From contig NC_049564.1 of NCBI RefSeq assembly GCF_013368755.1, positions 4,100,001 through 4,164,000 on the forward strand: 64,000 nucleotides of DNA, given 5' to 3'. Of this stretch, positions 37,618 to 62,235 are shown piece by piece; the first letter of the stretch is position 1; the number at the start of each line of letters is the position of its first letter. The notes beneath the pieces were generated by a model, which saw nothing but the letters and a program-made list of their open reading frames with translations, did not search any database and was not told where the DNA came from. This stretch comes from Talaromyces rugulosus. Its lineage: Eukaryota > Ascomycota > Eurotiomycetes > Eurotiales > Trichocomaceae. The position numbers and the translations under genes are program-made.

Positions 37618-38758
37618 TTAAGAAATGGCCTGAATTGGCCAGGCCAGCCAGTCAGACCATTCATAACCTAGATGTTGACTTATGAGGTTCACCAAAAACG
37701 CGCCACCATCCCCACACATCCACATGTCAGTACGATAATGCACCACGACTCCAAAATATGCTAAAATAACCAAGGCATGTGGCTCTCTTCGTCTCAACAA
37801 GTCAGTGTATCCCTGGCATAATATCACAGGCCAAGCCAAGATAGAATGGATGCTGAGCTTTCCTTGCGTACCCGAAGGTGCTGAACTAAATACAGACTGC
37901 AATGATGAAATGGCTTGCTCACAACTGACAATATCTTCATGAGGGAGGTCGGCTGACTCGATCAGATTTTGCAGTGGCGAGCAGAGCTCTCCCAGAGGCG
38001 CACCCACAGGAAGAACAGATTCGCCTTGTTTTATAAGCGGGCTCAGAATGCTCTCACTCAGGATGTGCCATGAGCCACTGGTGATTGCTCTGACCCCTTG
38101 ATGCAAGGAAAGATACCGAACAAACTTCTCCATGAACGGCTCGAATTCGGTCTCCCGGAAAATGAAAGTTTTGCACATCTCATGTAAGCCGAGAATTGAA
38201 GAGAAAAGAAAAAGTGGAACGCAGGTTTCGTCGTTGACTTGAGGTTTCATCGCGTTGAGTATGGATAAAGCGTGCGTCTGTAGCTCAGTCGCCTGGTGTA
38301 GATAAAAGGCTTCTTCGCTCGGGTCCAAGGTGCTCCGATGTATGGCAGCAAGAGCTAGGAGCTCGTTCATGAGATATGGAGCCGACACCGCCTCTTTTAA
38401 GAGCTTATGAAATGGGATGTGGACATCTCCAAAGTCCAATCGAAATGACTCATAAGTTTCTGTTGAGAGATGGTAGAAAAGACCAACGTGCTGCATATTC
38501 ACTGGACGGTATTGTGTATCTAACTCTTGGTGATCGGACGGGCTAACTGCGGATGACTCGCTCCCAGCCACATATTGACAGTTTCGCTCTGAGCTTGTGC
38601 AGTTCGAACAGACGGGTCTTTTTTCATCGCACTTCCAGCCAGTCAGCATCCCCCCCCTTGGAAAAGAATGTATTTCGCGTGGAACTCAATACCTTCATAT
38701 GACGTCGCTTGCATTCCATGCAGCCTTTGCGCGACTTGCGATGTGACCTACGAGGCAT
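37618..38758 (-). CDS. Short Zn2Cys6 transcription factor
   Basis: Nuclear DNA-binding regulator of the fungal binuclear zinc cluster type. Two exons, 38758-38693 and 38631-37618, give 359 residues. The cluster is Cys13-x2-Cys16-x6-Cys23-x6-Cys30-x2-Cys33-x6-Cys40 (GCMECKRRHMKCDEKRPVC); an intron splits it between Lys22 and Cys23, a usual position for this class. No coiled-coil dimerisation linker is obvious after the cluster. The rest resembles the short regulators of the sterol-uptake (Upc2/Ecm22-like) class, with a central LALAAIHRSTLDPSEEAFYL helix and a C-terminal helical region, rather than the classic Fungal_trans domain. It lies between the RTA1-like gene and the saponin-hydrolase-like gene, both in the same orientation, and may control them. 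In-frame sequence upstream of the chosen ATG is open but does not look like part of the protein. Confidence 0.88.
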
Positions 38759-43740: not shown

Positions 43741-46700
43741 TAGAAATCACCGATATTGTTGCCTCCACCGGTGCAACTCCGTATCTGGACACAAACGCTG
43801 GAGACAGATATCTCGTCTACAATAGAAATAGCTGGGTCTCGTGAGTTCTCTTCCACCTAGAGGTTGAAAACATGTTTAAATTATTAATTTAATTACCTAT
43901 TCCAGCTACGACGATGCCATCACATTCTAGGCGAAGATTGAGTATGCTAATATCATGGGTCTCTCTGGAGTGATGATCTGGGCCATAGATCTCGATACCA
44001 CAGCTCTGGATGCGCTCGATGCCGTGGTAGATGCTTCGGCTGTTAACGCTACGGACATGCCCTTTGACCTTGTTGATCTGTCATACCTGTTCCCTGAAGA
44101 GATGCTCCCACCATCTGACACCCCTACAAAATACGGGCTTGTAACTCTAGGTCATAGCATCAATCCGGCCGATGGCGGATTTGGTTTTATGCTTGTAACT
44201 GGCGACTCGTCCGCTGTCTCTTCGCTAAAGAAGCGTGACGGTGAAGCGGAGCCTTTTGTCTTCCTTAACTGCCCTCAAAGTATATATGATCAGTCTAGAG
44301 ATAAAATGGCCCATACTGCCAGGGTGACCTGCCTAAGTGATGATGTTGTTGGATGTTTTGCCATTATGGAACAAGGCGTGGAAGGAACCATAGTGGAGAT
44401 GCCGGATAACTGTTCTCCCAAATCGTTTGCCCGAGCCATATCACTTGAGATTTCTGATGGTAAGTCTGTTTTGTTTACCACTGGTGGGTGAAATTTTAAC
44501 TTTCTCCATGCTGAGTCCCTACAGATCAGAATTCCCCGGGCAGCCTTTCAGCCAGAAAGCTGTCTTCACCGGTTTACGACTTCACGTTCGACTTTGATAT
44601 CGGGCTTGCCCGAAGAGACACAGGTAACGTTAGCGTCCGCATAGATTTGACCAACGTCCCCGGCTACTGGAAATACATTGTCGATCATCCTGGTATCCAA
44701 TCGCAGGACCTTAAGAAGAGATTCTTTGCTCCAACAGCCGGAGACTGGGCGGATGAGTTTGGGGAGATTCTAGATAACAATGTTACCTATGACGAATCAT
44801 TTTATTTCCAGCAAGATCTCACCAAGGTATATTTATGGGATACAGTTGACACTTGCGTTGTCGACGGTTATGACTTTATTGAGGGATTTGGGGCTTACGT
44901 CCAGGGTGCGATGACTTCTGACATTCTCTACGGCGTGACTTTCATAGTGGGTGTAACCCCGAACCCCCTTCTTTCATACTGGGTTCGGTCAACTGACAGC
45001 AAGCAAATGCTAGTATACGGCCGATGAAAATGGCCATCTTAGCCCGGAGAATCAGGGGAGCGGTTTCATGAAAATCACTGGCGATACCTACTTGACTTTC
45101 GGAATCGGGGGAGTTGCAGATGTCGACATTACGCGGGTGAACAAGGGCAATCCTGCCTGGAGCTCAGACATGCAACATACGCTGACAACCGGCTCCAATG
45201 TCGTCGTGACTGGGGGAAATCCCTCGGCTGTTGTTACCCCGTATTATGAGATCATCTATGAGACGGGTACGTATAACCCATCGGCTGATTCTGAGGGCAC
45301 CGACTCCAGCTCGGTGGCTGGGTTCAACGGTCGTATGGAGGCTGTTATCATCAGCGATTTGGGAAATTCCACTGTCAGGTGGCCAATCCAATCTGATAGC
45401 ACCCTATCACGCAAGGACAATATAATTGAAATCCCGACTAGTAACATTCTATACGACACTCCTGGTGGCGGTGGGGGCATCAGCTTGGGCGCCAAAGTCA
45501 ACATTGGCCTAGAACTCCAACTTAGACATTTACCTCATTTCAACTGGCTTGAAGACGGCAAGGTAAATTATACATGTTGTGATTTTCCAAATAGATAACG
45601 GAACGCGTCGACTGATGCTATTTCCCTCAGATGTACATGTCCTACCAGACAGTCTCGCAATTCTCTTTTACTCCAGGAGATGACGAACAGGGAGGCACCG
45701 GTAATCCGTCATGCTCAAGCTATGAGATAGCGACAAGTATTACACAAGGTGTTGAAGGAGGGTGAGCACCTACTCATATACCACGTTCAAAACCCAGCCG
45801 AGTAATTACTAATGAGTGTCTAAACAGACTCAATTTGCTGGGCTTAGGCAGTGGGAAAGACTATGAATTGGTACTAGCACTGGATCGGAGATCGCCCGAC
45901 CGGGGAGTATGCTATCCTAACCAGGTCGGTATTGTTGTCGGAGACGATAAACGCAGCGACAACGAGCTTCTCGCGACCAGAGCCAAAGATATGGATCATT
46001 ATATGGCAGGGTTCGGCCTGGAGTCTGGTGAAATACCGAGACCAGATGATTTCCTAAAGGGTGGCATGATTGAAGGCCTCTCAAAGGTGTTTGATGGCGG
46101 CCAAAATGTGTGGGGTTGCTCAACCAAAGGCAGTTGTCTCACTTGCGGACAAGGAGAGTTTTCATCGCCACTATGTTGCGGCTGTTCTAGCATGCCATAC
46201 CAGTTTCAAAATTTCCGCGATATGACGCCCTGCGATGAGTGCGATCAATATTCAGACGATGTTGATGGTATTTGGCCATCCGGTGGATCTGACAACGGCG
46301 AGGACGAGGAAAACAGTGACCAATTCCATCATCTATACAAGCGAAAAGATAGAACGGCGACCATGAGTTCGAAGGCGGTCAATGTCTGCGGTCGCCAAGT
46401 ATCACTTGGAGGAGATTATCGGTATCCGTCATTCCCAAAAAATTACAACAACGCTTGGGACGGTATCCAACGCAGGAAATGGGACGTTATCCCAAGATAT
46501 TATGGCAATACCTCTGACAATTGTCTCGTATGGAATGTTGGCAAATTAGCCACAGCCGATCAGACCTGGATCCCCAGCGAGGCTGATCCCAGAAAGATGA
46601 AAAAAGTCCGAACCGATTACCAAAGTGCGACATCCTCTTCCTCTTCCTGGTGAAATAAAAAGACAGGCTAAGCTAACAATATTCAATCACAGCTGAACAT

Positions 46701-47715: not shown

Positions 47716-48625
47716 GTCGGCAACCTCTCTGTCGTGTGCTAATTTTCACCCAACTAATAGTATTAATTAAATTGATATGTTGTGGGGTTATAGATTTAGT
47801 TTCTTATGGAGTTTGAAGAACTTTCTTTTATCTATTACCAGTCGACTTTTCGAGATAGCTACTATTTGCTGTTAATTATCAGTTGTTTTTGTGTATACTA
47901 TTTAAGGTTCTTGTACTTCAGCCAGTTCTGTTGATGTTGCTTCCTGTTTTAAAGTGAAGGATTAATCTACTAGTATTTGCCCTTTATCCAATGATACTAG
48001 TGACAACTTTCTAGCCCCTGGAGACCAAAAAAAAGATTAATAATAAGTTGGAACTACTACACATTAACCCCTTATAAAGTCTAATCAATGACATGCTATG
48101 CTCTCAGAGAGCTTTTACCATTAATCCTTCCAACGAGCACATAAGTAGACATTAATATAAAAATCTATCCAAAGTAGTCAGGAGAATCACTAAGCAATAG
48201 GACCAGTATAAAATAACATCAACATTAATAAAACACATTCAATGTTCTAGACCTCACACTAAATTACCTAGAAGATTTCCGTTAGTCCGTTGGCTGCGGG
48301 ACAACAGTGGACAATTACCTAATTAAGGCCCTCTGTCGCACTTTTCCAAAAACATTAATTAATTGCAATAATATTATCTACCATGTCGTGCAGACATACG
48401 TTGAAGTGCCGGAGACTCTCGGGTATTGCCGAGCCCATTCCTCAGGGGAGAAACCGAGGCGGCTGTCTTTTACTTTATTCTATTTCTTATCTAGTGCATC
48501 TTCAACGTTACGTTTCGGATCTTTGAAGCATAAAGGTAAACAAATCTTTTCCAGAAATGGAAGCTTCACGTTGGTAAGGTGTGATATTCAACGAGAATTA
48601 TCAATATCTCAAATCTCAGCTCGAC
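47716..48625. promoter_or_regulatory. AT-rich interval and promoter of the HglS-like gene
   Basis: About 0.9 kb. The left 600 bp are AT-rich with no coding sense. The right 250 bp are the upstream region of the 2-oxoadipate dioxygenase gene and contain one CTCGG-N6-CCGAG palindrome (separate entry). Confidence 0.55.
48418..48433. promoter_or_regulatory. CGG-N6-CCG palindrome (CTCGG/CCGAG arms) upstream of the HglS-like gene
   Basis: CTCGG GTATTG CCGAG has perfect 5-bp arms and lies 193 bases before the ATG. The inverted CGG triplets with 6-bp spacing are the classic site type of a dimeric Zn2Cys6 factor such as Ppr1. Confidence 0.6.
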
Positions 48626-50098
48626 ATGATGCTATCGACACTGCATTCTGGCAGGGTTCACCCGGACGAGTTGCGCACGTCTTTCGCGCTGGCCATGTCG
48701 CACATGTATAAAAACGAAGTGCCCCTATACGGCAATCTGGTGCACATTGTGCAGTCTGAAAACAACGAAATCCTTATGAGCAACAGTAATACTATGCCTC
48801 CTGATAGCCGCGAGCGCCTCACCCTCGAGCGCCACGGTGCGATCCGGCTGGGCAAGGCCGAGGAGCTGTACACAGTTCGACGCATCTTCGCCCTGCTGGG
48901 TATGCAGCCTGTTGGATACTACGATCTTTCGGTAGCAGGTCTGCCTGTGCATGCCACCTGCTTTCGCTCCATTGACACCAAATCGCTGGCCGTGAACCCG
49001 TTCCGCGTCTTCACCACACTGCTGCGGCCGGAGCTGATACGCTCCCCGGCAGCCCACGACCTGGCTCTCCAGCTTCTCCAGCGCCGGAATATCTTCAGCC
49101 AAGAGCTGCTGAGAATGCTGGACGTTGCAGAGGCCGTAGGTGGACAATTGAGGGTCGAACAGGCCGAGATCTTTATCTGTGAGGCTTTACGCACCTTCAG
49201 TTGGGCCCCACTGGCCGAGGCCTCCCAGACTGAGTACCAGTTGCTGCAGGCAGAGAATCCCATTCTGGCCGACATCGCCAGCTTCCGCACAGCTCACATC
49301 AATCACCTGACACCTCGCGCACTGGACATTGACGCAGCCAGGGCTGCCATGGCAGCCGAAGGTATGCCTGTGAAAGATCTAATCGAGGGCCCTCCTAGGC
49401 GGAAATGGCCTATCCTGTTGCGTCAGACGAGCTTTCTCGCCCTGGAAGAGAAGATACAGTTCAAATCAAGAGACACGCCACCACCTTTTGGTGAAGAGAA
49501 TGCAAAGAAAAATGTCGGCAACCTAGTGGATGGCTCCCACAAGGCCCGTTTCGGCGAGATCGAGGAACGCGGGGCTGCCGTGACCCCTGCAGGGCGGGCT
49601 CTCTACGATAAATTGTTGGAGAGCAGTATGCACGAAGCGGGATGCCAGAGGACATCTCCCGAGGCTGTTGACGACACGTTTCGAGCGTACCCCGACACGT
49701 GGGATGAGCTACGTAAGCAAGAGCTCGTATATGTCAAGTATAGCTTTACCGGAAAATTGCCCTCGTCAGCGCTACTGGCCTCGGAGCTCGGTAAACCCGT
49801 CGTAAGTCCATCTATCATCGAGAGTCTAATTGAGGATGGCTATCTCGGGACTTCGCCCATCACATATGAGGATTTCCTACCTTTTTCAGCGGCGGGTATT
49901 TTCCAATCCAATTTAAGCCGAAACTCTAAACCGCTCCAAGTAGGTGAGTCGCAACAGGCTGCTCGGCAGGCTGACATGGTGGGCTTGGAACATGCCTTGG
50001 GGTGCTCTGTTATAGACCCGGATGTTCTGTATGCTCGAGCGCAGGAAGAGAGCTTGGAATCGAGTTTGTTGAATTTGAAATCTCTCCTCATTAGATAG
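48626..50098 (+). CDS. 2-oxoadipate dioxygenase/decarboxylase homologue (HglS, DUF1338 family)
   Basis: Iron-dependent enzyme related to bacterial HglS, which converts 2-oxoadipate to D-2-hydroxyglutarate and CO2 in lysine breakdown; plant relatives do the same. A single exon of 490 residues, close to the bacterial length of about 460. The signature blocks are complete: LERHGAIRLGKAEELYTVRR with metal-ligand His70 and the substrate-binding Arg74, GMQPVGYYDLSVAGLPVHAT, and ASFRTAHINHLTPRALDID with His224/His227. EGPPRRKWPILLRQTSFLAL comes next, and the Glu ligand lies in RFGEIEERGAAVTPAGRALY. By family knowledge the metal is held by two His and one Glu, all present. The ATG at 48626 places His70 exactly as in the bacterial enzyme. 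Absence of introns among intron-bearing neighbours is compatible with acquisition from bacteria, though old fungal homologues also exist. It is the first gene of the 48-62 kb cluster. Confidence 0.88.
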   Translation: MMLSTLHSGRVHPDELRTSFALAMSHMYKNEVPLYGNLVHIVQSENNEILMSNSNTMPPDSRERLTLERHGAIRLGKAEELYTVRRIFALLGMQPVGYYDLSVAGLPVHATCFRSIDTKSLAVNPFRVFTTLLRPELIRSPAAHDLALQLLQRRNIFSQELLRMLDVAEAVGGQLRVEQAEIFICEALRTFSWAPLAEASQTEYQLLQAENPILADIASFRTAHINHLTPRALDIDAARAAMAAEGMPVKDLIEGPPRRKWPILLRQTSFLALEEKIQFKSRDTPPPFGEENAKKNVGNLVDGSHKARFGEIEERGAAVTPAGRALYDKLLESSMHEAGCQRTSPEAVDDTFRAYPDTWDELRKQELVYVKYSFTGKLPSSALLASELGKPVVSPSIIESLIEDGYLGTSPITYEDFLPFSAAGIFQSNLSRNSKPLQVGESQQAARQADMVGLEHALGCSVIDPDVLYARAQEESLESSLLNLKSLLIR

Positions 50099-50427
50099 TA
50101 AACCTAAGGGAAAATAAACATAATGAGGTGGTTACGGGCTGCGCAATGTGGCAACGTTACAGCATCAAGCTTTTGATCTGCTTCCCTCAAGTATCCTGCT
50201 AGAAGGCGTTCATAAGTGACTTATAATGGGCTATGTTCAGCCTGTAGTCATCAGACAATGTCTTGTACATAAATGAAGACTAGTAGAATTGTAAGCTTGT
50301 CAACAACTGCAGGTCGTATACCCTAGCAGCTTTTCTTTCTGCGAATATTGCATAAACATATTTCCTAGGACTTTTATTATACAAATGAAAATGCCATCCA
50401 GTCCAATAACTACAGTAGATACTGTCA

Positions 50428-51294
50428 CTACATGATATTTCTTTCAACCATAGGACCCGTTCGCTGGCTGTCCAGGTCTTTCCAGTGGGCCTGGCGTCTC
50501 CTGACAACCCCCGAGTAAAACCAGCTCGCCATGGTGAAAACGTCATACACGGGCAGGTTGACTGCTTCTTGTACCGACTGGCCAAAGGGAGGCATCTGGG
50601 TGCACTCAAGCACAATGGCTCCGACGTCAGGGTGGTCCGCAACAAGGCTTTTTGCAGCATCGACTAATTCAGTCTCAATGGCATCGAAGCTGTACGGGCT
50701 CTGCATGCGTACCAGCCGCTGCAAGTGCCCTCCGTCAGGTGCACCGCGGATGTAGCAGCGCGCAGCATTTTGCTCAGGAATTCCGAGGCGCTCAAAGTGG
50801 AGTGGTCCGAGTTCAGCAGCATTATAGGTGATGATGCCGATCTTCTCATCCGGCGCAAGCCAGGCGAGGATGGAAGGGATTTGAAGCAGAGAGGAGGTGG
50901 CAACAGGGATGGGCAGTCTCGCCGCAAGCCTGTTTTACGGGGTTAGTTAACCTCAAAAGTTTCGCTTCTCAGGTGTTTGGAGAAGCTGGCAGCAAAAGTA
51001 CACCTACAATGGTTGGACCATGGCGAGAAAGCCACAGCTGGTGATGATACCGCAAGCGCCTCTGTCGGCTAGTCTCTTGCCAGCAGCGACAAAACTCTCA
51101 ATGAACTCGTCATTATAGTCGTCCTTGGACACAAGCGCGCCTTCCTTGGAGCCATTGGCGAGCTCTCGAATGATAGGGAAATTCCATGTGAGTTCACTGA
51201 AGGCATCACCAGCGGGTCGGTAGAAGAAACACTCTACGGCGATAAAGCCGATAGGGGGAAGGCCATCCCGATCCTCAGCTCTGTAGTCGGTCAT
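50428..51294 (-). CDS. Asp/Glu racemase superfamily protein
   Basis: Two exons, 51294-51008 and 50929-50428, give 262 residues of the Asp/Glu/hydantoin racemase superfamily, which also holds maleate isomerase and arylmalonate decarboxylase. The two catalytic cysteines expected of the fold are present: Cys87 in GIITSCGFLAM and Cys205 in IVLECTQMPPFG. The Rossmann-like half-domains can be followed (LPPIGFIAVECFFYRPAGDA, IPVATSSLLQIPSILAWL, EKIGIITYNAAELG). The reaction could be racemisation, isomerisation or decarboxylation of a small acid; the sequence does not say which. The gene is convergent with the HglS-like gene (stop codons 329 bp apart). Its promoter holds two overlapping CTCGG...CCGAG palindromes. 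The ATG at 51294 gives MTDYRAEDRDGLPPIGF, the usual start of such fungal proteins. Confidence 0.85.
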
Positions 51295-52129
51295 TTTGTA
51301 GCTTGACAAAAGATAATATGGTGATCCCTGTTTAATTCCTGTGTTCACTGGGTTTATAATGTTGTATTTCCATTTATACGTTCTATTACCTTCATTTTTC
51401 TCTGTATCTTATCTCGGCCCCGGCTCCGAGCTCGGGAAATGCCGAGTTCTTTTGATAAGTAGCTTCTAGATTTTTTAGATTACTAGCCCGTTTTCTAAAA
51501 GAATGGGGTGTCGACCGAGCATTATTATAAACATTAAGAATATGTCGAATTGGTAGTCACTCTTTATCCAATTCTTCCGGCGGCAATAAACCAATATCAG
51601 TGTAATTCTGAGATGTTTGCAATCAGCACCGCAGCATTGGCCAATTATTTCGTGATATTTACGACACACATTTGAACTCATGCCATACATAGATCTGCTA
51701 ATAGCCATAGGCGGGTAAAAGAACGTTTCAGAGGTTGTACATGCATCGCCACTTCTTCGACCACGGAAATTCCTTGTTTAATCACACCGCCATTGTAGAA
51801 CAATTAATATTATAAAAGCCTGTACTTGATCTTGCTCGTAGATTTTCTATCATCTGTACGTAAACGAAATGTGTCTAAAGAATTAGCTTCATGTACGTTT
51901 CAATTTGGATTCAAAGTTTCTTTATATCGCGTAATCATGACCAGCCGAAATAGACATCACGCTTATAAAAGCATAATGACAATAGAGATGCCTCCACGAC
52001 CAATTGCATAACCTTGGCTCTGCCTGAAAACTTCAACTATCCTAACCTTGAACCTGATGTATTTAATTGAATATATCCTGATTCTTCATTCTCGAATAGA
52101 ACAACATAAAACCTGTCTGATCCACGCCC
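51295..52129. promoter_or_regulatory. Promoter of the racemase-family gene and 3' flank of the MFS gene
   Basis: 835 bp, AT-rich except around 51410-51450, where the palindromic operator-like sequence lies. No gene seen. Confidence 0.55.
51413..51446. promoter_or_regulatory. Two adjoining CTCGG...CCGAG palindromes upstream of the racemase-family gene
   Basis: CTCGG GAAATG CCGAG at 51431-51446 repeats the 6-bp-spaced site seen in the other cluster promoters. Immediately left of it, 51413-51430 reads CTCGG-N8-CCGAG with the same arms and 8-bp spacing. The pair lies about 120-150 bases upstream of the start. Confidence 0.65.
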
Positions 52130-53964
52130 TTAGTCTTTCACAGCAACAGCCTTTCCAGTTGTAGCTTCGCTCTCGTGGTCACTACGTCGACTCAATACAT
52201 GATCAGCCATCATATACCTAATTGCTCGGTTTGAGGATGGGAAAGAACGCCTTACCTTGTCTCCAAAGACTCGATGACTACTACTGCCTTGGTCCGCTTG
52301 TATTGATTCCACCAAGGACCCTCAAATAAATCATCCAGCTTTTCCAGATCCACACCAGCTGTCTCAGGAACGACCAAGAACGCGTAGATAAGGGCCAAGA
52401 AGCACCAGCCGGCAAAGAAGAGGAATCCTCCCCAGTTATCGGTCTTGGCAAGCAAAGATGGGACACCCTTGTTGACGCCGAAGAAAAACAGCCAGTGAAA
52501 GGTCTGAGTCAGGGCGGCACCGAATGAGCGGATCTGGTTTGGCCATAACTCTGAGACAAACACATAGGGCAATACTAAAAGGCCTGCGTTGGTTTTCAAG
52601 TTAGCCTTTATTTCTCGACTTGGGGAACGATTTCGACCAAAATGAAGACAATAGCACATACCTACGGCATAGCCGAAGCCATGAATAAAGATGGCGGCGA
52701 TAGCAGCTTGACCCGCAGCGTTAGAAACAGGACCTGCTTGGTGGTACTTGATAAATACGCCAATGTAAATATCCGAAAACATCTGTATAGTAATGCCAAT
52801 AAACAGACTGTTTCGACGGCCAAGTGCGTCGACAAAGAAAAAGCTGGCGATTATAGTGTAGAAGAATTTTCCTACACCATACATTGCAGCGACAAATAGA
52901 CTGTAAGAGGAACCGCCTGTGACACCGACCATATTAAGTACTGGCACCAGATAAGTCGTTATGCTGTTTGCTCCGGATAGCTGGGCCAAGGCGTAAGAAA
53001 TCAAGGCCTGTTGAGTACGTCGGAGGTTCGCTGGGACCAGAAACGTTTCCTTTAGAATAGCTCTTAAGCCCCGAAGGGAATACGACGTTCCATTCCCATA
53101 AGCGCTGCGCTCCTTGGCGAGGGACTTTTTGATATCCTGCAGCTCAGATTGCACGCGTGGATGATCAAGGGGCAAGCCTCGGATTTTCACGAGGGCCTCG
53201 GTAGCTTCTTCGTCGCGACCTGCCAGGAAGAGCCAACGGGGGCTCTCAGTGACGAAGAAACTGGCGACGATTACGAACGCCATGATAATGCACGGCACAA
53301 AAAAGGGAATCTGCCACTGCAGCGAACTGGCAGCCATGTGGACAAAACAGCCATAGACTGTGAATGCGGCTAAGAAAAGTGAAAGTAGGAGGACGACGGT
53401 GAACCAGGTAGTGAGCAGGCCACGGATCTCAGTCGGAGCGATTTCCACGAGCGATACAGGCCCGATTACCGTAAGGGGTCCAATGCCGAATCCAGCCACA
53501 ATGCGTCCGGCGTATATGGTGGCGAGGTTTCCCTGAGAGCCGACGGCAATCATCTGGCCGAGGATCCAGATACAAGTATACAGGCGAAAAGACCATAGAC
53601 GGCCCACACGGTCGTTGATGAAGAATGACAGAGCCGCCCCGACACCACATCCTATGTACACCAGGGATACAAAGTTGGAAACCTGGGCTGGATTGGACGC
53701 GGAAGTGATGCCGAATTCTGCTGAGAAGCCAGGCAGAGAGGGTATAGTAGCGCTTGAGCCTTGGTCCCAACCTGAGAGGCGGTTAGTTGATGTTCATCTT
53801 GACAAAATGACTAAACGAGTAAGGGGGATAAACTTACAAAGAGGTATTCCAGCAAGCGCATAGAGTGCCGACGACGTCAAGAGCGTGCGATTGACGATCA
53901 ATGACCTTGGAGAAGTCTTGATGTTTTTAATGTACTTTGCGAGGGTTGAGTCTTTAAAAACCAT
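52130..53964 (-). CDS. MFS transporter, sugar/quinate/lactose permease-like
   Basis: Plasma-membrane proton symporter of the sugar porter family. Four exons, 53964-53838, 53771-52662, 52583-52256 and 52190-52130, give 541 residues in consistent phase. Twelve helices can be followed. Landmarks are DQGSSATIPSLPGFS at the end of helix 1, FFINDRVGRLWSFR in the loop between helices 2 and 3, GRIVAGFGIG, the VTESPRWLFLAGR motif in the central loop, QQALISYALAQLSGANSITTY in helix 7, VDALGRR, and VPETAGVDLEKLDDLFEG after helix 12. The substrate cannot be read: relatives carry quinate, lactose, uronates or amino-sugar acids. If the last intron is retained, the protein stops at once after ESLETR, so the tail is the least certain part. 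It is divergent from the FAD oxidase gene across a 637-bp promoter with two CGG-N6-CCG sites and is probably the importer of the cluster's substrate. Confidence 0.88.
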
Positions 53965-54237
53965 CTTTGCTGATGTCTGTGATTTTGACTCCTATATTTT
54001 TTGTTGCTTCCCCTCAGTGAGAAGGTCTCGGGCCAGATAGTCAAGACTGCGGTTGAGGTCTTATGGAAACCCTGCGTTGGCTCGTCTGTTTATCTTGGTC
54101 CCTCATCATGGCAATATACGCCATGCTAAGAAGTAAGAAGTCTAGAGCAGCGATAAGCTCTTTCCTCTAACACAGAATGAGCGGCGCTGATTGAATATGA
54201 GCTGGGGAAGTATCCGGGCTGGATTTGAAAGTTAGAA

Positions 54238-54253
54238 CTCGGTAGAAGCCGAT
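54238..54253. promoter_or_regulatory. CGG-N6-CCG site in the MFS/oxidase promoter
   Basis: CTCGG TAGAAG CCGAT; the arms TCGG/CCGA are a perfect inverted pair, with one mismatch in the fifth position. About 274 bases upstream of the MFS start. Confidence 0.55.
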
Positions 54254-54450
54254 GGGTCTCAACCACCTTAATTTCAAACTGCGAACTCCATGACTAGTAA
54301 ACTTTGCTAGTAGTATGTAGCATGATGGACGCTACGTGAGAGGGGGACGCAATACCTAGGAACTATGTGGGGGGTGGCTTATCTTCTTAACCCACCTCAT
54401 ACTAGAGTCAGCACTATAAATGCTGTTATCGTTATCGCCATCCAATTATG

Positions 54451-54466
54451 GTCGGGAGAATCCGAC
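54451..54466. promoter_or_regulatory. CGG-N6-CCG palindrome (GTCGG/CCGAC arms) in the MFS/oxidase promoter
   Basis: GTCGG GAGAAT CCGAC has perfect 5-bp arms, 136 bases before the FAD oxidase ATG, with the same spacing as the other cluster sites. Confidence 0.6.
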
Positions 54467-54601
54467 TTTCGTTGGTGTTCACCCCTGCAACCCCAGATCA
54501 GATAGGGTGGTACATTCGCATTGCCACTCGCCCATGGTAGGCGCATTGAGCACATATCAAGATCTGCTTGCCGGCAGCATCACGGTGTTGTATAACCAAA
54601 A

Positions 54602-56110
54602 ATGCCGCACCGAATTCCGACCAAGAATGAGCCGATTATCATCGTGGGTGCCGGAGCCTTTGGCCTAAGTACTGCTCTGCACCTTGCCCGTCGCGGCTAT
54701 ACCGACGTGACAGTATTTGATAAACAACCGTATGACAAGTCACTTTACTCATACTTCAACGGCTGTGATGCAGCGTCTGCAGGTAACCAAAAAAAGCCGG
54801 GTGGTGACTTCTAGTGAAGACAAGCTGACGCAAGAGACTCTCCAGATGTCAACAAGATCATAAGAGCAGGCTATGGCAAGGATGTTATTTACCAGGCCCT
54901 AACTCTTGAGGCTTTGGCAGGCTGGGATCAGTGGAATGCCGAGCTAGAGAGCGGCCAGACGGTGCCTACAGGAATGACTACCGCAGATCGTGTCTGGATC
55001 AACAACGGACATTTATCCATGACCGATGGTGCGGTGTTACCTCCTTTTGAGCAGGCCAGCCTCGAGTCCATGCCCAAGAACACTCAGCTCGTCGCCACAA
55101 ACCCACATGATGTACAACTTGCAAAGTCGCTAGGTGTGAACCTCGAACCATTCAAGAGACAAAACCCTAGCCGGCCAAATGTGGCCATCTATGATCGTAC
55201 GGGTGGTCTGACATATGCCGACAAAGCGTGTCGATTCGCGCTGCACAAGGCCCGCAGCTACGACGCAAAGTTCGTCCTCGACCCTGTAGCAGGCGAGCTC
55301 AAGGAACTACTACGCGGCTCCAATGGGGAAGTAACCGGCATTCGCACGGCGGACGGGAAATCTCATCAGGCTGTTATGGTCATACTGGCGTGTGGCGGTT
55401 GGACGCCGTCGATACTGCCGGCCCTGGACGGGTTGAACGAGGCTACAGCTGGCTCGGTGGCGCTGCTCAAGATCCCTTGGGAGTCGCCTCTCTTTGACCG
55501 GTTCGCACCCGAAAACTTCCCCAGCTGGATGCACAAGATGCGTGACGGCCACGCCGGGGGTCTATACGGCTTCCCTCGGACGGATGACGGCTGGTTGAAA
55601 ATTGGCTACCGAGGCACCAAGTACACAAACCCGCAGGTGCAGAGCGATGGGCGCGAGCGCAGCGTGCCCATCACTCGGTGGTCCAAGGGGCAAACGATAA
55701 AGGGAATCCCAAAGCAAGCGTTGAGCGTGATTCAGACGTTCCTCGACGAGTATCTTCCGGAACTCGGAGAGGCGGGCATAAAAATATCCATGACCCGCAT
55801 TTGCTGGTATAATGACAGCTTTGACAACCACCTCACAATTGACAGAGTTCCCGGCATGGCTGGAATGATGGTGGCCACCAGCGGGAGTGGCCACGCCTTC
55901 AAGTACTTTCCCAGTCTCGGGAACTGGATCGTTGACGTTATGGAAGGAGTTGGAATCGACAGACCAGCCATTCAGGCTTGGAGATGGAGGTCACTCGGGG
56001 GCCAGCAGACTCCTATCAATGAGATCATGCAGGGTTCGAAGGGACCCAGGGCTTTGAGTAATACAGCATTGATTACGGACTCTCGCCTTGATTCGAGTGC
56101 TAAATTATGA
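54602..56110 (+). CDS. FAD-dependent amine oxidase (sarcosine/pipecolate/saccharopine oxidase or amadoriase class)
   Basis: Flavoenzyme of the DAO family (monomeric sarcosine oxidase group), which oxidises secondary amines with O2, releasing H2O2. Two exons, 54602-54782 and 54846-56110, give 481 residues. The dinucleotide-binding fold is at the start (IIIVGAGAFGLSTALHLARR, GxGxxG at 16-21). FNGCDAASADVNKIIRAGYG follows, containing the lysine-bearing SAD-NKI-R segment typical of fructosyl-amine and saccharopine/pipecolate oxidases. The family's substrate barrel comes next (GGLTYADKACRFALHKARSY, LACGGWTPSILPALDGL, GGLYGFPRTDDGWLKIGYRG), then the C-terminal FAD-binding ATSGSGHAFKYFPSLG. Length fits the fungal group. 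The covalent-FAD Cys of sarcosine oxidases cannot be assigned with certainty. Next to an HglS homologue, an L-pipecolate or saccharopine-type substrate is attractive, but Amadori products or N-methyl amino acids are possible. Confidence 0.85.
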
Positions 56111-56510
56111 GCTCGGCGTGTCTGACTTCCAAGCACGCAGAACCAATTGGTCACCCTACATGTAGTTACGATGAAGCACATTTCATGGAGATTTTGACAA
56201 TTTGACTGCTACAATGGTTGCAGAGAGATAATATAAATAGGATTTGGCAACACATAATTATATCACCTTGGTTGTGTACAGTTCATACAAATCCCAATCT
56301 AATGAGTAAATACTCAATTTTCCTTTTGTACTGTCCATACACGTGTATAATCTGGAGAGTTTGTTATGTTTTTCTCTGTTTCTACCTAAGAGAATCAAAT
56401 TGTTGATGTTGTTTAGCACATTTCTTAAGAAAATAGTTGTATTGTCTATTCCGTTCCACCCAATGCAATAAAAATGAACATTCATTCCGCTCCTATGGCG
56501 CTTCATAACC

Positions 56511-57601
56511 CTAACCCTTGATTTCCCGGACGGGCGAGTTTGGCTTGCCCTTGGTGAAGAGCGCGCGGATGTTTTCAAAGCACTCCCGCTCAGCCTTCTT
56601 GAAGGCGACGTCCGTCAGGCCGCCCAGGTGAGGCTGGACAATGACCTTGTCGCTCTGCAAAAAGTACTGGTCAGGCTTGGGCTCGTTGACAAACACGTCG
56701 AGCCCTGCGCGAGCCACTTTGCCGCTCTCAAGCGCGGCGATGAAGCTGGGCTCGTGGATGACAGCACCGCGAGCCGTGTTGATTAGAAACACGCCGTCCT
56801 TCATGGCAGCAAACTCGGCTGCTCCGATCAGGTTCTCTGTCTCGGCGTTTAGTGGGCAGTTGAGCGACACTACGTCGGCAGCACCGAGAAGTTCGTGCAG
56901 CGTCGCACAGTATGTTGCATTGTACTTGGTCTCCTCATCAGCGGGCAGCTGCCGGCGGTTGTAGTACTTGATCTTCATGTTGAAGGCTAGAGCCTTTTTG
57001 GCCATGTACTAAATGTCTTTGAGTCAATACAAGTGCCAATAAATTTATTATTTTTTTTTTTTTGGAGTAGTACCTTTCCAATAGCTCCCATTCCTACGAT
57101 GCCCAGCGTCAAACCCTCGGGATCGCGGCCAGGCACCAAGCCGGCCCCTGCTCTCCAGACACCGCTGCGCGCACTCTTCTCGGCATTGGTGGTGTTTCTG
57201 AGAGTGGCCAGGGTCAGAAATATGGCCATGTCGGCGGTAGCCTCTGCAACAGCGTTGACGGTGTTGCAAAACCAGATACCTTTCGAGGCCATCCAGTCAA
57301 CATCGAACTCGTTGAAGCCGGCACTGGCCGACGTGATGATTTTGCAGTCAGGGACCAGGTCCTTGAGTAGGGCTTCATCGAAAGGCTCGTATGGCGGGGT
57401 GCCCATACGGATGATAAAAGCGTCAATTGGGCCGTTGTTTTTGATGTCCTCGGGGATCATCTGCTGCGTTTCAGCGCGGTTGGTGGCGGGCAGAACAGAG
57501 TATTGGAATTCGGTCTGGAAGTCCTCAAGGTAGTCCTGCCCTACGAACTTGGGCTCGCCTAGACAGACGACCCGCGGCTTGGAAGTTGGTACGATGGCCA
57601 T
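56511..57601 (-). CDS. NAD(P)-dependent D-2-hydroxyacid dehydrogenase
   Basis: Cytosolic oxidoreductase of the D-isomer-specific 2-hydroxyacid dehydrogenase family, interconverting 2-ketoacids and D-2-hydroxyacids. Two exons, 57601-57074 and 57008-56511, give 341 residues. The N-terminal catalytic half contains CKIITSASAGFNEFDVDWMA and NAVAEATADMAIFLTLATLR. The Rossmann motif GMGAIG is at 170-175; the intron interrupts just after it. The catalytic triad is intact: Arg256 in NTARGAVI, Glu285 in VNEP, His303 in QPHLGG. The residues after beta-strand 2 read YYNRR; the basic pair suggests NADP(H) rather than NAD(H). The fungal GOR1-like/mandelate dehydrogenase subgroup is closest by motif. In this cluster it could act on the D-2-hydroxyglutarate expected from the HglS-like enzyme, or on another ketoacid intermediate. 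It is tail to tail with the FAD oxidase gene (400 bp). Confidence 0.88.
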
Positions 57602-58307
57602 GATATGATTATAATAGCCTTTGCTAAAGTGGCGGAATGAGGTAGCTGTGACTGGTCTAGATACGCTAGTGATATCAAGGAAAAGGAAGTAGTGCAAAGA
57701 AGAAAAAACTAGTAGATCAAACTTGGAGCAAGTGATATTTACGCTCCCGATATTTCACGACTTAAAAGGTATCCTGACATCGACGAAGGTAATTCCTAGT
57801 TACAAGTGGGACGCCACTAAAAAAATTAAACTTCCACTACATCCCTTGCACGGCTTCCCCCGAGATGCGGAAGATCCACAACGATAGTAAAGGCACGTTG
57901 GATTTCTTCCGCCTTTCAACTTATTATTTAATTTAAAATAAATTATTTGTTGGAGCATTTTTACTAATAGACTTGTGTCTTTATCATTCCTCTTGAAGTG
58001 CGTTTTCGTGTTTGTAACACTTCTCTCTGCATGCACGTTACTAGACATATGTTCGTTCGGCTTCTTCCGTACATTGCTGTAGCAGGTCTTGGTGGGTGCA
58101 TACTAATGTCGGCAAGCTGATATCCTTCTCTGCTCCATGAGAAATAGTAAAGGATTTTTATTTGTTGAGGGGAATCCCAGTATTATTAAAAGGACATTCA
58201 TGTTTGCACACTGGGTCTCAGCGACAAAGAATAGTAACATAGTTATATATAGAGCCTTCAAATTACGAGACTTATTATACGATATTTATTTAATATTTAC
58301 ATTGCGT
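57602..58307. promoter_or_regulatory. Promoter of the dehydrogenase gene and 3' flank of the aldolase gene
   Basis: 706 bp, AT-rich in the middle; one CGG-N6-CCG site at 58058-58069. No gene seen. Confidence 0.55.
58058..58069. promoter_or_regulatory. CGG-N6-CCG site upstream of the dehydrogenase gene
   Basis: CGG CTTCTT CCG, about 457 bases upstream of the start. Only the triplets match (the flanks read T..T), so it is weaker than the extended sites. Confidence 0.4.
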
Positions 58308-59240
58308 CTATAAAAGAAAATCGCCCCCTGTTTCCTTTAAGATGCACTGATACTCGGGCGCAAATTGCATATACATGACCTCTGGTGTGCCGGTACCCTT
58401 CTTCGTATATTCGGCTTCCTCGCGGGAAACGAAGACTTTAGACAGGCCTGAAACAGCGCCTCCGATACTGGACGAAGCCGTCGCCGACTCGACCAATAAC
58501 TGGGTGTGACAGGCGCGCTCGAGGGCGATGAAGAAGCCGGCAGCCTCGGCAATGGTGCCGCCACAGGTGAGAATGCCATGGTTCTGCAGGATGAGGTTCT
58601 TTTTCTGCGGGCCTAGGGCGTGGGCGATATTGACGCCCTCCTCGGGGGCTAGCACGACACCGCCAAAGGCTGTGTAGATGGCGAGGTCTTCGTAGAACAT
58701 GCAGCTATCCTGGTTTAGCATGTCGATACCACGCCCAAACGTGCTCCAGGCTCTGCCATAAGGACTGTGCATGTGGCACGCCGCGTGCAGGTCCGGGCGT
58801 GCCTCGTGGATTGCTCGGTGGATGATGAAGCCTGCGCGGTTTACCATGGCGTCGGCTCCTCCGATGCGATTCCCTTCACGGTCGATGTGTACCATGTCCG
58901 AAATGGTAAGCACGCCAAAATGGACGCCGTACGGGTTGATCCAGAAGGTCTCGGGCTGGACAGGATCTGAGAAAATGTCAGTGTCTCGTAATATGTTATT
59001 GCTTTGCGTCCTTTTCTCACCTCGTAAGCTTATATGTCCGCTACCACCATCCGCGAATCCCAGCTTAGCAAAGACGCGAAACGCGCCAGCCATCTGCTCC
59101 AACTGCCATTTTCTCTGCTCTAGCGGGGTTTCCGGCCAAGGAATGCGATGGATGGGTCTTTCCGGCGTCCTTATGGGCTTGGGAGCTTGTGTCGCTTGGG
59201 CATCATTTGGAGGAGATGTCAACGTTGCTGTTTGTGACAT
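58308..59240 (-). CDS. Class II aldolase/adducin-family enzyme
   Basis: Zinc-dependent enzyme of the class II aldolase/adducin fold (L-fuculose-1-phosphate aldolase, L-ribulose-5-phosphate epimerase and relatives), which cleaves or epimerises small hydroxy-acids and sugar phosphates. Two exons, 59240-59021 and 58966-58308, give 292 residues. The intron is 54 bases, a multiple of three and free of stops, so the unspliced frame is also open. It is called an intron because HISLR then runs straight into DPVQPETFWINPYGVHFG, as in relatives. Metal ligands are His138 and His140 (CHMHSPYGRAW) and His203 (LQNHGILTCGG). GFADGGSGHIS is the usual phosphate/substrate loop; without the usual TSGN-type residues it may not bind a sugar phosphate. 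Fungal members are often found in catabolic clusters. Two CGG-N6-CCG sites lie upstream. Confidence 0.87.
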   Translation of the reverse strand: MSQTATLTSPPNDAQATQAPKPIRTPERPIHRIPWPETPLEQRKWQLEQMAGAFRVFAKLGFADGGSGHISLRGEKRTQSNNILRDTDIFSDPVQPETFWINPYGVHFGVLTISDMVHIDREGNRIGGADAMVNRAGFIIHRAIHEARPDLHAACHMHSPYGRAWSTFGRGIDMLNQDSCMFYEDLAIYTAFGGVVLAPEEGVNIAHALGPQKKNLILQNHGILTCGGTIAEAAGFFIALERACHTQLLVESATASSSIGGAVSGLSKVFVSREEAEYTKKGTGTPEVMYMQFAPEYQCILKETGGDFLL

Positions 59241-59407
59241 TTTTAGGAGATCTGAACTGTGCGGTGTATAGTTTAGAGGTAGCTGTTATGAATTGTGACC
59301 AGCCTTGCCCGGAATACCATGAGGAGGACATTGGAATAAACAACAATAAACAATGCCCTTGGAGACCTTGCCCCCCTCATCCCACGAAACCAAAAATGGC
59401 ACCATGC

Positions 59408-59419
59408 CGGATCAAGCCG
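59408..59419. promoter_or_regulatory. CGG-N6-CCG site, proximal, upstream of the aldolase gene
   Basis: CGG ATCAAG CCG, about 168 bases before the aldolase start; same spacing as the other cluster sites. Confidence 0.5.
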
Positions 59420-59507
59420 AGTCACAGGACAGGAGATTCTCTATGGAAACTTCCGTGGTTCGTATGAGTGCGCTGTTCCCCACGTTCTTGGCCTGTCAAT
59501 CTGTCAC

Positions 59508-59519
59508 CGGTATGTCCCG
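59508..59519. promoter_or_regulatory. CGG-N6-CCG site, distal, upstream of the aldolase gene
   Basis: CGG TATGTC CCG, about 268 bases before the aldolase start, exactly 100 bases beyond the proximal site. Confidence 0.5.
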
Positions 59520-59629
59520 AAGCCGTAATACCAGGGGAGCGGGAACCAGAGACTACAGACAAAAAAAAGTACAAAGTTTATTGCTCTTCCCCGCATACAT
59601 CCTTTGCTTACTCACTCATATTGCTAGCT

Positions 59630-62235
59630 TCAGTTTAGCGAATTAACGTTCGTCTCCGCTTCGAAATCCTTAATGCCCTGAAGTAGCTCCTGAGCCAACC
59701 AATGCAAATCTCCTGGCGCAGTGACATCGTCCAACGCCATGATCCAGTCCTGTAAAGCCATGTCGGATCCTCCAACCTGTTCTGGGTCTGCTCTATCCCC
59801 ATTAGCAGCTGTAGATGTGTCGTACGTATATCCAGAAGTATTCTCGCCGCCGCCACCGCCGCCGCCCATAAGAGTTGTCAGCGCCGTCAGCTCCAAGCTC
59901 TCGCCACGGCTCTCTGCTGCATCCCCGCCGTTGCCACAGATCATGGCAATCGTGCTCTCCGAAAGCAGCTCGAAGATGTCACGGTACGAGATCGCCTCGT
60001 TCCAGCGCTCGGCGATAATGATGAGGACTGTTGTGCATGCCATGCACGTGTTGATGACCGTGTTCAGCCGCGTGCGTCTTCGAACATGAGGGGACTTCCA
60101 CAGGCAGTAGAGATACGTCAGGCCGCCCAGGAACAGGATGTGCAGGCTACCCCAGGTAAACTGGATCTGTGACTGCTGCGACTGATACAGCCGCCGGTAC
60201 TGGAGGCACATTTGCCGCGCATGCGCTGAGCAGGTCTCAAAGGCGCGGTCACGGATGTCCTCCTGCTCACTATCTTCCTGCGTTAGTGAAACCGGCACCT
60301 GGGCGGCGGGTTTTGAGCTGTCGATGATGTAGTGCCGATACAGAAGTAAAATAGAATAGTTGTAAGCCAACTGAAACCAGTCGTTTGAGGCAAACACCGA
60401 CAGTGGTCGAGCGTGAAGATTCTCCAGTTTATCCGGAGATGTAGCGCGCCAGTCTTCTAGTTCCTGGCGTAGAGCCTCAACCGAAATTATATTCGGATTC
60501 CTGCCGCTATCACTACCATGATGAGAGTTGACAGAATATAGATTGTCGCTGAACTTGGACCATAATTGCCGAAGTTTGATGGAATGGAGAGCCCCCGTTA
60601 GCTGGGTTGGCGGGTCGGAAGGGTTCTGCCTCGGCGGGCAGAGCAAGCCATCTGGTGTAATATATTCGTCGTCGATATCTAGGGGTAACTACTTCTTTTT
60701 AGTATAAAAAAAAATGGACAAATGGAAGGCTGTTCGGAAATGAAAAATGAAAGGAGCGCTGCAGTACCTCAACGTCAATGGCATTGTCCGATATGCTTGC
60801 TGGACGGCCAAGAATAAAGGATGCCACACGATCAATATCATATGCGACCCAGAAACAACGCTTGGAAATCTCCTTAGTAAGGGAATCGACCGAGTTGCGA
60901 TACCTCTCAGTGCTACGGTGGTAGCCTAACTCGATACAATGCCGCATAGCCATTCCTGATATTTTCCTAGAAATACACATATAAGCTTGTAAAGAAAGAA
61001 CGTGCTTGCTGCAAAAACGACATATGGAATATATTTCTTACCATAGACTGGCCCCAACCGGTGATCGAACAGAATATACAGCACAACAAAGCATTGCTTG
61101 TATGGATAGTAGGTTATCCATGTCGAGGAGGGGTGCTATTTGATCAAGGGCCATGGCGTAATATCCCTTTTTTGTTAACCATACCGTTCTGACAGAAACG
61201 GAAGAACCAAACTCACTTCTGCTGCGTCAAACTCGCTATGCCCAAGCGCCAGAGAGCCGATTGCGTAGACCTGAAGACAATATTAACACGCCACTCTATC
61301 GTTGGATACAATGTGAAACAAAGAAAGATTAGGCCGCACCATAAGCACGAAAAAGAGAGATGATCCCGGGGCAGCACCGAGGTCATTGCGCAGGCTAGCT
61401 TCTAAACACTGCTGCTCCATGAGCCGAAAGGTCGGTTGATGCAGGAAGGGATACTGCGGGTGGATGTTGCTGAAGTAGGCCTTGGAGAGCTTGGCCATGA
61501 TGCCAGGGCCGGGGAACTCCTGGTAGCGACCCGTGGCATGGCTCGTGTTGCTATAATGCGAGCTTGCTGTGCCACCAGCGCCTCCGCGACGAGGCAAGCG
61601 CAGAGTGCTACTAACGATGCGCGAGAAGTGGACAGCCGACGAAGGCCCAAAGTACTGTGGCTCGCGCCCGGCGGCGCCGAGACAGAGAAGAGCGACCTCG
61701 TTGCTGAGAAGGTCACTTTCGTCAGCATCGTCACTGTCATTGACAGGCTGCTGTGTAGAAGCGCCAGGAGCAACATTCGCAGCACCAGCAGAGTCCGGTA
61801 CGGCACCGTCGGCCTTTTGCGGCTGCTGAAAGAGACCTGCAAAGTGATCAATCGCCACCTCTGGCCGTGATTCTTGCAGAAGGCCCTCCAAGAAGGCCAC
61901 GCGCGCTTCGAGAGATCGCACATAGTCACGCGGGCGGTGCAAACCCGTGGCCGGGTCTTCGACCAAGCAGTCTAGAAGGGTATGAGCCACCAGGAGGGGA
62001 TGAGAGAGAAATAAAGAGACAAATACCTCGGTCACTTCTGGTGCAATTACTGCATTTGGGGCTTTGCCCATCGCACTGTATGCACAAGAATCGTTAGCCC
62101 AGCTATCTCCACCTCATCCCCCGTTAGCTAGCGTACCTTCAACTTGCGCTGCTTGCAGTTTGTACAAGCTAGCATCGTGCGCTCGCCGACTTTTGCCCGC
62201 TTTGCGGGGTGCGAGGCCCGGCGCGCTGTGCTCAT
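59630..62235 (-). CDS. Zn2Cys6 transcription factor with Fungal_trans domain, probable cluster regulator
   Basis: Nuclear regulator of the Gal4 class. Seven exons, 62235-62137, 62075-62027, 61971-61340, 61270-61217, 61166-61042, 60966-60768 and 60688-59630, give 738 residues in phase. The zinc cluster is Cys24-x2-Cys27-x6-Cys34-x6-Cys41-x2-Cys44-x6-Cys51 (ACTNCKQRKLKCDGQSPKC); introns split it twice. A linker and coiled coil follow (YVRSLEARVAFLEGLLQES), consistent with a homodimer. The middle holds the Fungal_trans domain (PQYPFLHQPTF, LLSIQAMLCCAVYSVRSPVG, MRHCIELGYHRS, ISKRCFWVAYDIDR). The tail has glycine runs and many hydrophobic acidic patches. Its position at the end of the cluster and the repeated CGG-N6-CCG sites suggest that it controls the genes to its left. 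No obvious site was seen in its own upstream region. Confidence 0.9.

What the first reader, a model, noticed from the sequence alone, without database searches (positions are those of the whole stretch)
48418..59519. Shared CGG-N6-CCG operator in every promoter of the 48-62 kb gene cluster
Seven inverted CGG triplets with 6-bp spacing lie in the upstream regions of the HglS-like, racemase-family, MFS/FAD-oxidase, dehydrogenase and aldolase genes (48418, 51431, 54238, 54451, 58058, 59408, 59508). Four are extended to TCGG-N6-CCGA or longer. By base composition alone I would expect about one CGG-N6-CCG in roughly 3 kb of such intergenic DNA, and the 8-base extended form only once in about 65 kb. 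Inverted CGG pairs with fixed spacing are how Zn2Cys6 dimers choose sites (Ppr1 uses six). A full-length Zn2Cys6 factor with a coiled coil ends the cluster at 59630-62235, so these genes look like one undescribed regulon.
Basis: partly seen in the sequence, partly recalled or inferred. Interest (0 to 1): 0.9.

Follow-up and report, generated by a model that had tools for sequence, protein, structure and literature searches.

The report
Shared Ppr1-type operator, fungal catabolic cluster
A mould of the genus Talaromyces carries a cluster of seven genes in which every promoter except that of the regulator gene holds the same short mirror-image DNA site, spaced as expected for the cluster's own regulator, so the cluster looks like one undescribed, jointly switched nutrient-breakdown unit.

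Summary
The genome's background predicts 0.5-0.7. The regulator's DNA-binding domain is closest among solved structures to yeast Ppr1, gap-free through the linker; Ppr1 and UaY use a spacing of six (passage of PMC4832277). Spliced models give HglS, a racemase-fold protein, a sugar-type transporter, an FAD amine oxidase, a D-2-hydroxyacid dehydrogenase and a class II aldolase-fold protein. Regulator, oxidase, racemase and, in two cases, transporter are linked in other ascomycetes. The regulator's own promoter has no site. Most likely: a pathway-specific Ppr1/UaY-type activator with its regulon, a new member of a known kind. The substrate is open; HglS, whose role in fungi is unsettled, makes a route through 2-oxoadipate testable. 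Not tested: binding, expression, conservation of the sites in relatives. The UaY orthologue is the main rival.

The parts
48418..48433 (.). operator CTCGG-GTATTG-CCGAG, about 190 bp before the HglS start codon
51431..51446 (.). operator CTCGG-GAAATG-CCGAG, about 135 bp before the racemase-fold gene
54238..54253 (.). operator CTCGG-TAGAAG-CCGAT in the divergent transporter/oxidase promoter
54451..54466 (.). operator GTCGG-GAGAAT-CCGAC, about 135 bp before the oxidase start codon
58056..58071 (.). operator-like TTCGG-CTTCTT-CCGTA in the dehydrogenase promoter
59406..59421 (.). operator-like GCCGG-ATCAAG-CCGAG before the aldolase-fold gene
59506..59521 (.). operator-like ACCGG-TATGTC-CCGAA before the aldolase-fold gene
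48626..50098 (+). HglS-family 2-oxoadipate dioxygenase/decarboxylase, 490 aa, no intron; only match in the genome
   Evidence: (PF07063, 467 bits)
50428..51294 (-). Asp/Glu/hydantoin racemase-fold protein, 262 aa, 1 intron; two invariant Cys (87, 205); only match in the genome
52130..53964 (-). MFS sugar-type transporter, 541 aa, 3 introns
   Evidence: PF00083
54602..56110 (+). FAD amine oxidase of the sarcosine/pipecolate/fructosyl-amine oxidase kind, 484 aa, 1 intron, ends in AKL
   Evidence: (PF01266)
56511..57601 (-). D-isomer specific 2-hydroxyacid dehydrogenase, 341 aa, 1 intron
58308..59240 (-). class II aldolase-fold protein, 292 aa, 1 intron; nearest solved relative TqaM
   Evidence: (PF00596)
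59630..62235 (-). Zn2Cys6 transcription factor, 738 aa, 6 introns, Zn_clus plus Fungal_trans; no CGG-N6-CCG in its own upstream 865 bp

Best explanation
A catabolic gene cluster with its own activator. The Zn2Cys6 protein at 62235-59630 most likely binds as a dimer, one zinc cluster on each CGG, held six base pairs apart by a Ppr1-type linker and coiled coil, at TCGG-N6-CCGA-like sites; the nearest site lies 135-275 bp before the start codon of each of six structural genes. It would turn them on when a substrate or product is present. The regulator gene carries no site of its own, so it is probably not autoregulated. The structural genes encode import (MFS), oxidation of an amine or amino acid, probably in the peroxisome (FAD oxidase ending in AKL), an epimerase or lyase step (racemase fold), and 2-oxoacid / 2-hydroxyacid chemistry (HglS, dehydrogenase, aldolase-fold protein). 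Shown by computation: sites, spacing, gene models, families, kinship to Ppr1, linkage of part of the group elsewhere. Inferred: binding, activation, identity of the factor. The substrate is not known; a chain that reaches 2-oxoadipate, which HglS would turn into D-2-hydroxyglutarate and the dehydrogenase perhaps into 2-oxoglutarate, is my best guess (about 0.2-0.3).
For: Spacing: CGG-N6-CCG 8 times in 3,293 bp, 7 for the other 20 spacings together; 0 of 5,000 shuffles; P about 1e-7 against the genome's sampled background. Each of the five promoter regions has at least one; 12 of 16 half-sites TCGG. Of 47 perfect CTCGG-N6-CCGAG in the genome the closest pair is the one here, 3,013 bp, the next 59 kb. 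Regulator: best PDB relative Ppr1 1pyi, E 3e-12, 63 residues without gap through zinc cluster, DPATG...PR.YV linker and LE.R; Gal4 E 1.5e-5. Linker kept in 56 of 59 sequences (the window's and the 58 of 120 listed relatives in which the Zn2Cys6 pattern was found). Linker sets the spacing (PMC4245848 passage); spacing 6 for Ppr1 and UaY (PMC4832277 passage). Cluster unity: regulator and oxidase hits share a contig length for 28 of 120 regulator hits, regulator and racemase for 16 of 120, all three for 7 contigs; locus tags UA08_08175/08178, ZTR_08742/08746, OPT61_g1658/1659/1662; fused gene models of related transporter and regulator in Boeremia and Pseudogymnoascus (62% and 59% identity over the transporter). 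Positive control: the urate oxidase gene of the same genome has TTCGG-N6-CCGAA about 375 bp before its start codon, one of only 19 in 35.76 Mb.
Against: No binding or expression data. Site conservation in relatives untested. The four sites before the dehydrogenase and aldolase-fold genes are weaker (each lacks the T or A on one side). Genome-wide the motif is not in excess of the pattern read backwards: 442 against 664, 47 against 42, 19 against 41. Other Zn2Cys6 factors are near: 61 exon matches to this DNA-binding domain, two of them this gene's own, best paralogue 44%.
Confidence: 0.77

Rival explanations
1. The sites belong to the orthologue of UaY, the purine-utilisation activator, and the cluster is a branch of purine or ureide/hydantoin use; the local factor does something else or co-regulates.
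Confidence: 0.12
2. Another of the many Zn2Cys6 proteins with an N6 preference, not linked to the cluster, binds these sites.
For: Besides this gene's own two exons, 59 exon matches to its DNA-binding domain occur in the genome; several align through the linker region.
Against: The gene next to the cluster already has the right linker, and pathway-specific factors of this class usually lie with their targets (general knowledge).
Confidence: 0.08
3. The sites are a chance or compositional effect.
For: Window-wide CGG-N6-CCG is not in excess (11 of 100 shuffles reach 17); TCGG-N6-CCGA occurs 442 times in the genome, fewer than the pattern read backwards, and two places among the first 50 listed have three within 6 kb.
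Against: The excess is confined to one spacing and to these promoters; 0 of 5,000 shuffles and P about 1e-7 against sampled background. At the two places with three sites no comparable cluster was seen, read by eye from open frames without a family search.
Confidence: 0.03

Closest known systems
Ppr1 of Saccharomyces cerevisiae (and Candida Ppr1)
   Same: Zn2Cys6 cluster, gap-free linker and start of coiled coil, CGGN6CCG site (PMC11534201 passage)
   Different: Ppr1 controls uracil synthesis or, in Candida albicans, purine catabolism (same passage); this factor sits in an amine-oxidase/HglS cluster, and orthology to Ppr1 was not tested
UaY of Aspergillus nidulans
   Same: same spacing class (PMC4832277 passage); specific control of a catabolic pathway (PMC5746545 passages); original 1995 paper not held
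   Different: UaY acts on purine genes; this genome's urate oxidase site has TTCGG ends, the cluster's half-sites are CTCGG more often than any other form
RhaR / PDR-1 rhamnose regulators
   Same: Zn2Cys6 activator of a catabolic pathway with TCGG half-sites (PMC4245848 and PMC5469009 passages)
   Different: spacing 11, not 6
HglS of Pseudomonas putida and plant FLO7
   Same: family PF07063 at 467 bits; metal triad and substrate arginine kept
   Different: in a fungus, beside an amine oxidase and a Ppr1-type regulator; fungal role stated as open in PMC7286885 (passage)

Membership tests
Ppr1-type Zn2Cys6 factor | Six cysteines C-x2-C-x6-C-x6-C-x2-C-x6-C | tested here: met
   Spliced model; PF00172 35 bits over cut-off 21; all six Cys invariant in 22 aligned sequences, the window's and 21 that I picked of 120 listed
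Ppr1-type Zn2Cys6 factor | Ppr1-length linker and following heptads | tested here: met
   63 residues aligned to 1pyi without gap; leucine/valine spacing 70-74-77-81 by eye; no coiled-coil program was run
Ppr1-type Zn2Cys6 factor | Binds CGG-N6-CCG | not testable with these tools
   needs purified protein
UaY orthologue | Closer to UaY than to other factors | not tested
   No UaY sequence was compared; only a source's name on one relative
Fungal catabolic cluster with its own activator | Genes linked as a group in other species | tested here: met
   for regulator, oxidase and racemase, and transporter in two cases; HglS, dehydrogenase and aldolase-fold gene not tested
Fungal catabolic cluster with its own activator | Co-expression dependent on the factor | not testable with these tools
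   no expression data
HglS (2-oxoadipate dioxygenase/decarboxylase) | Metal triad His70, His226, Glu294 and Arg74 | tested here: met
   Counted by hand on the alignment to 6w1g: His70, His227, Glu311 and Arg74; Ser403 kept (Ser421), Val402 is Phe420; residues named in PMC7286885
HglS (2-oxoadipate dioxygenase/decarboxylase) | Turns 2-oxoadipate into D-2-hydroxyglutarate | not testable with these tools
   needs an assay
L-pipecolate / sarcosine oxidase | Activity on pipecolate or sarcosine | not testable with these tools
   Names by sources only; nearest solved relatives are fructosyl-amine oxidases, best E 7e-32
Asp/Glu/hydantoin racemase superfamily | Racemase fold with two catalytic Cys | tested here: met

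The most novel reading that the evidence does not exclude
The cluster is a first gene-level handle on a fungal route through HglS: an imported lysine-type amine (pipecolate, saccharopine or a glycated or N-substituted lysine) is oxidised in the peroxisome, reaches 2-oxoadipate, is turned by HglS into D-2-hydroxyglutarate and by the clustered dehydrogenase into 2-oxoglutarate, all under a Ppr1-class activator that senses an intermediate.
Probability: 0.22. Interest if true: 0.72.

Novelty: new member of a known kind. Interest (0 to 1): 0.52.

Why it matters
It turns seven genes of unknown purpose, linked in part in many ascomycetes, into one candidate regulon with a predicted regulator and a 14-16 bp operator that a simple binding test can confirm or reject. 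It also ties the only HglS found in this genome to an amine oxidase and an activator, which makes the open question of what HglS does in fungi (PMC7286885, passage) directly testable, and suggests that Ppr1/UaY-type N6 operators serve more than purine and pyrimidine pathways.

Tried and rejected
Gene models by an automatic script misplaced exons of the racemase-fold, transporter and dehydrogenase genes, stopped early on the regulator, and for the oxidase started one base off because I gave a wrong start; they were replaced by hand-placed introns, which agree in length with relatives (oxidase 484 against 483 aa in T. atroroseus, racemase 262 against 262 in T. verruculosus).

Looked for other groups of TCGG-N6-CCGA among the first 50 of 442 places (only these were listed): two groups of three within 6 kb (C1 877-881 kb, 2141-2147 kb). 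Read by eye from open frames, without a family search, they hold a 2-hydroxyacid dehydrogenase and an esterase-like frame, and ABC-transporter-like and other frames; the place with the same 14 bases as 48419 (C1 2176755) lies among GTPase-like and other frames. I saw no second regulon there; the other 392 places were not listed.

Asked whether the structural genes have a clustered paralogue: racemase and HglS gave a single gene each, the oxidase only distant paralogues. Genes of the D-2-hydroxyglutarate/lactate dehydrogenase type were listed but not followed.

The urate oxidase locus has a second CGG-N6-CCG inside the gene, and 22 of 200 shuffles of that locus reach two matches, so the control rests on the perfect 16-base form, 19 in the genome. 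The urate-permease-like locus likewise has a second match inside its likely first exon.

Considered and dropped: 'aldolase' as a literal function (nearest solved relatives are TqaM, 4xxf, 9n43 and 'decarboxylase NovR'; an Fe(II) oxygenase of this fold is described in PMC11841055, passages). One racemase hit with a Fungal_trans domain (P0247) does not match the cluster's regulator and was not counted as a fusion. A profile of the racemase family found glutamate racemase 3out at E 1e-4 and allantoin racemase at 0.025, too weak to name a substrate.

Literature: judged by the titles and abstract starts listed, no paper on this cluster or regulon came up; the library lacks most subscription papers, so this is no proof of absence. 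Maleate-isomerase, purine or Amadori-compound roles could not be excluded.
Full report
What is there. The window is part of contig 4 of a 35.76-Mb, six-contig genome. The closest relatives listed for the regulator over its full length are Talaromyces atroroseus (80% identity), T. marneffei (75%), Xylariales sp. PMI_506 and T. verruculosus (72% each); a partial T. pinophilus sequence is 82% identical over 56%. I take the organism to be a Talaromyces, species not determined. Spliced models give, from left to right: HglS (48626-50098 +), racemase-fold protein (51294-50428 -), MFS transporter (53964-52130 -), FAD oxidase (54602-56110 +), D-2-hydroxyacid dehydrogenase (57601-56511 -), class II aldolase-fold protein (59240-58308 -) and a 738-residue Zn2Cys6 factor (62235-59630 -). 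Families by Pfam are PF07063, PF01177, PF00083, PF01266, PF02826/PF00389, PF00596 and PF00172 plus PF04082.

The motif. CGG-N6-CCG occurs 17 times in the window, which is not unusual. In the five promoter regions of the six structural genes (3,293 bp, GC 0.38-0.48; three of them run to the 3' end of the next gene, and for HglS I took 726 bp) it occurs eight times; dinucleotide shuffles give 0.19 on average and never eight in 5,000. Every other spacing from 0 to 20 occurs at most twice, seven in all, and no shuffle in 1,500 reached eight at its best spacing. The extended form occurs four times at spacing 6 and once at spacing 8. In 200 kb taken at regular places from all six contigs there are 41 CGG-N6-CCG, of which 7 in the 42.5 kb free of long open frames; that predicts 0.54-0.68 in the promoters. 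The number per 10 kb in that background is 0-5, in two overlapping 10-kb stretches of the cluster 7 and 8; for TCGG-N6-CCGA it is 0 or 1 in the background, 4 and 3 in the cluster. No site lies in the regulator's own upstream 865 bp or in the two gaps between converging genes. The half-site is TCGG in 12 of 16; the base before it is C in 8 of 16. The perfect 16-base form CTCGG-N6-CCGAG occurs 47 times in the genome; the two here are 3,013 bp apart, the next-closest pair 59 kb. Genome-wide these patterns are not in excess of the same patterns read backwards (442 against 664, 47 against 42, 19 against 41 for the TTCGG form), so only the local grouping speaks.

The regulator. Among solved structures its DNA-binding region is closest to Ppr1 (1pyi, E 3e-12), ahead of Gal4 (1.5e-5), and the alignment runs 63 residues without gap through the zinc cluster, the linker DPATG...PR.YV and the start of the coiled coil. 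The linker is held by 56 of 59 sequences in which the zinc-cluster pattern was found (58 of 120 listed relatives and the window's), and in 22 aligned sequences (21 relatives that I picked) D55, P56, G59, R62, P63, R64, Y66, L70 and E71 are invariant. Published work states that the linker sets the distance between the triplets (PMC4245848, passage) and that the distance is six for Ppr1 and UaY (PMC4832277, passage); PMC11534201 gives CGGN6CCG for Ppr1 (passage). The predicted site class of this factor is thus the one found.

A control in the same genome. The urate oxidase gene (UaY controls purine utilisation, PMC5746545 passages; that urate oxidase is a direct target is recalled) has TTCGGCCACCTCCGAA about 375 bp before its start codon; this 16-base form occurs 19 times in the genome. 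A urate-permease-like gene has TCGG-N6-CCG about 170 bp before a likely start; a second permease-like gene has none in the 1.9 kb fetched. Other purine genes were not looked at. So N6 sites seem to mark a second Ppr1-class regulon here, and for the same reason the UaY orthologue is the main rival.

Is the cluster a unit? Hits to the regulator, the oxidase and the racemase were matched by the length of the longest contig that carries them: 28 of 120 listed regulator hits share it with one of 120 oxidase hits (15 on contigs under 600 kb, one of only 7,890 bp), 16 of 120 with one of the 80 racemase hits that I entered of 120 listed, 12 oxidase hits with a racemase hit, and seven contigs carry all three. 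Locus tags agree: UA08_08175 and 08178 in T. atroroseus, ZTR_08742 and 08746 in T. verruculosus, OPT61_g1658, 1659 and 1662 in Boeremia, FALCPG4_013792 and 013786 in Fusarium falciforme. Two automatic gene models fuse a transporter 62% and 59% identical to the window's with the regulator. Members of Talaromyces, Aspergillus, Colletotrichum, Fusarium, Boeremia, Alternaria and Pseudogymnoascus are among the carriers; the more distant ones may be paralogous groups.

Verdict. It is a new member of a known kind: a pathway-specific Ppr1/UaY-type factor with its regulon. What would lift it is the substrate.

Noticed in passing
G000 C4:2963823-2963838 (L029 2748-2763): A perfect TTCGG-N6-CCGAA lies about 375 bp before the urate oxidase start codon, one of 19 in the genome: a likely UaY site, with an outer base different from most of the cluster's sites.
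   Followed up: partly
58308-59240: The 'aldolase' is closest in sequence to TqaM and, further off, NovR, so it may be a metal-dependent decarboxylase or oxygenase.
   Followed up: partly
50428-51294: The racemase-fold protein has no single-sequence match in the PDB at E up to 1 but a confident model nearest to allantoin racemases; a solved fungal family member, OpaE (9qbx), ranks tenth; two relatives are named DMSP lyase by their sources.
   Followed up: partly
56099-56110: The FAD oxidase ends in AKL, a PTS1-type peroxisomal signal; none of the other five structural proteins ends so.
   Followed up: no
44600-44613: A fifth TCGG-N6-CCGA lies left of the cluster, near frames without a Pfam match.
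   Followed up: no
37618-38649: An open frame with part of a Zn2Cys6 domain (E 1.9e-4), a second possible regulator in the window.
   Followed up: no
P0003, P0176, P0280: The regulator of Xylariales sp. PMI_506 is 72% identical, as close as that of T. verruculosus, while its oxidase and racemase are only 58% and 54%; exchange or paralogy of the regulator is possible.
   Followed up: no
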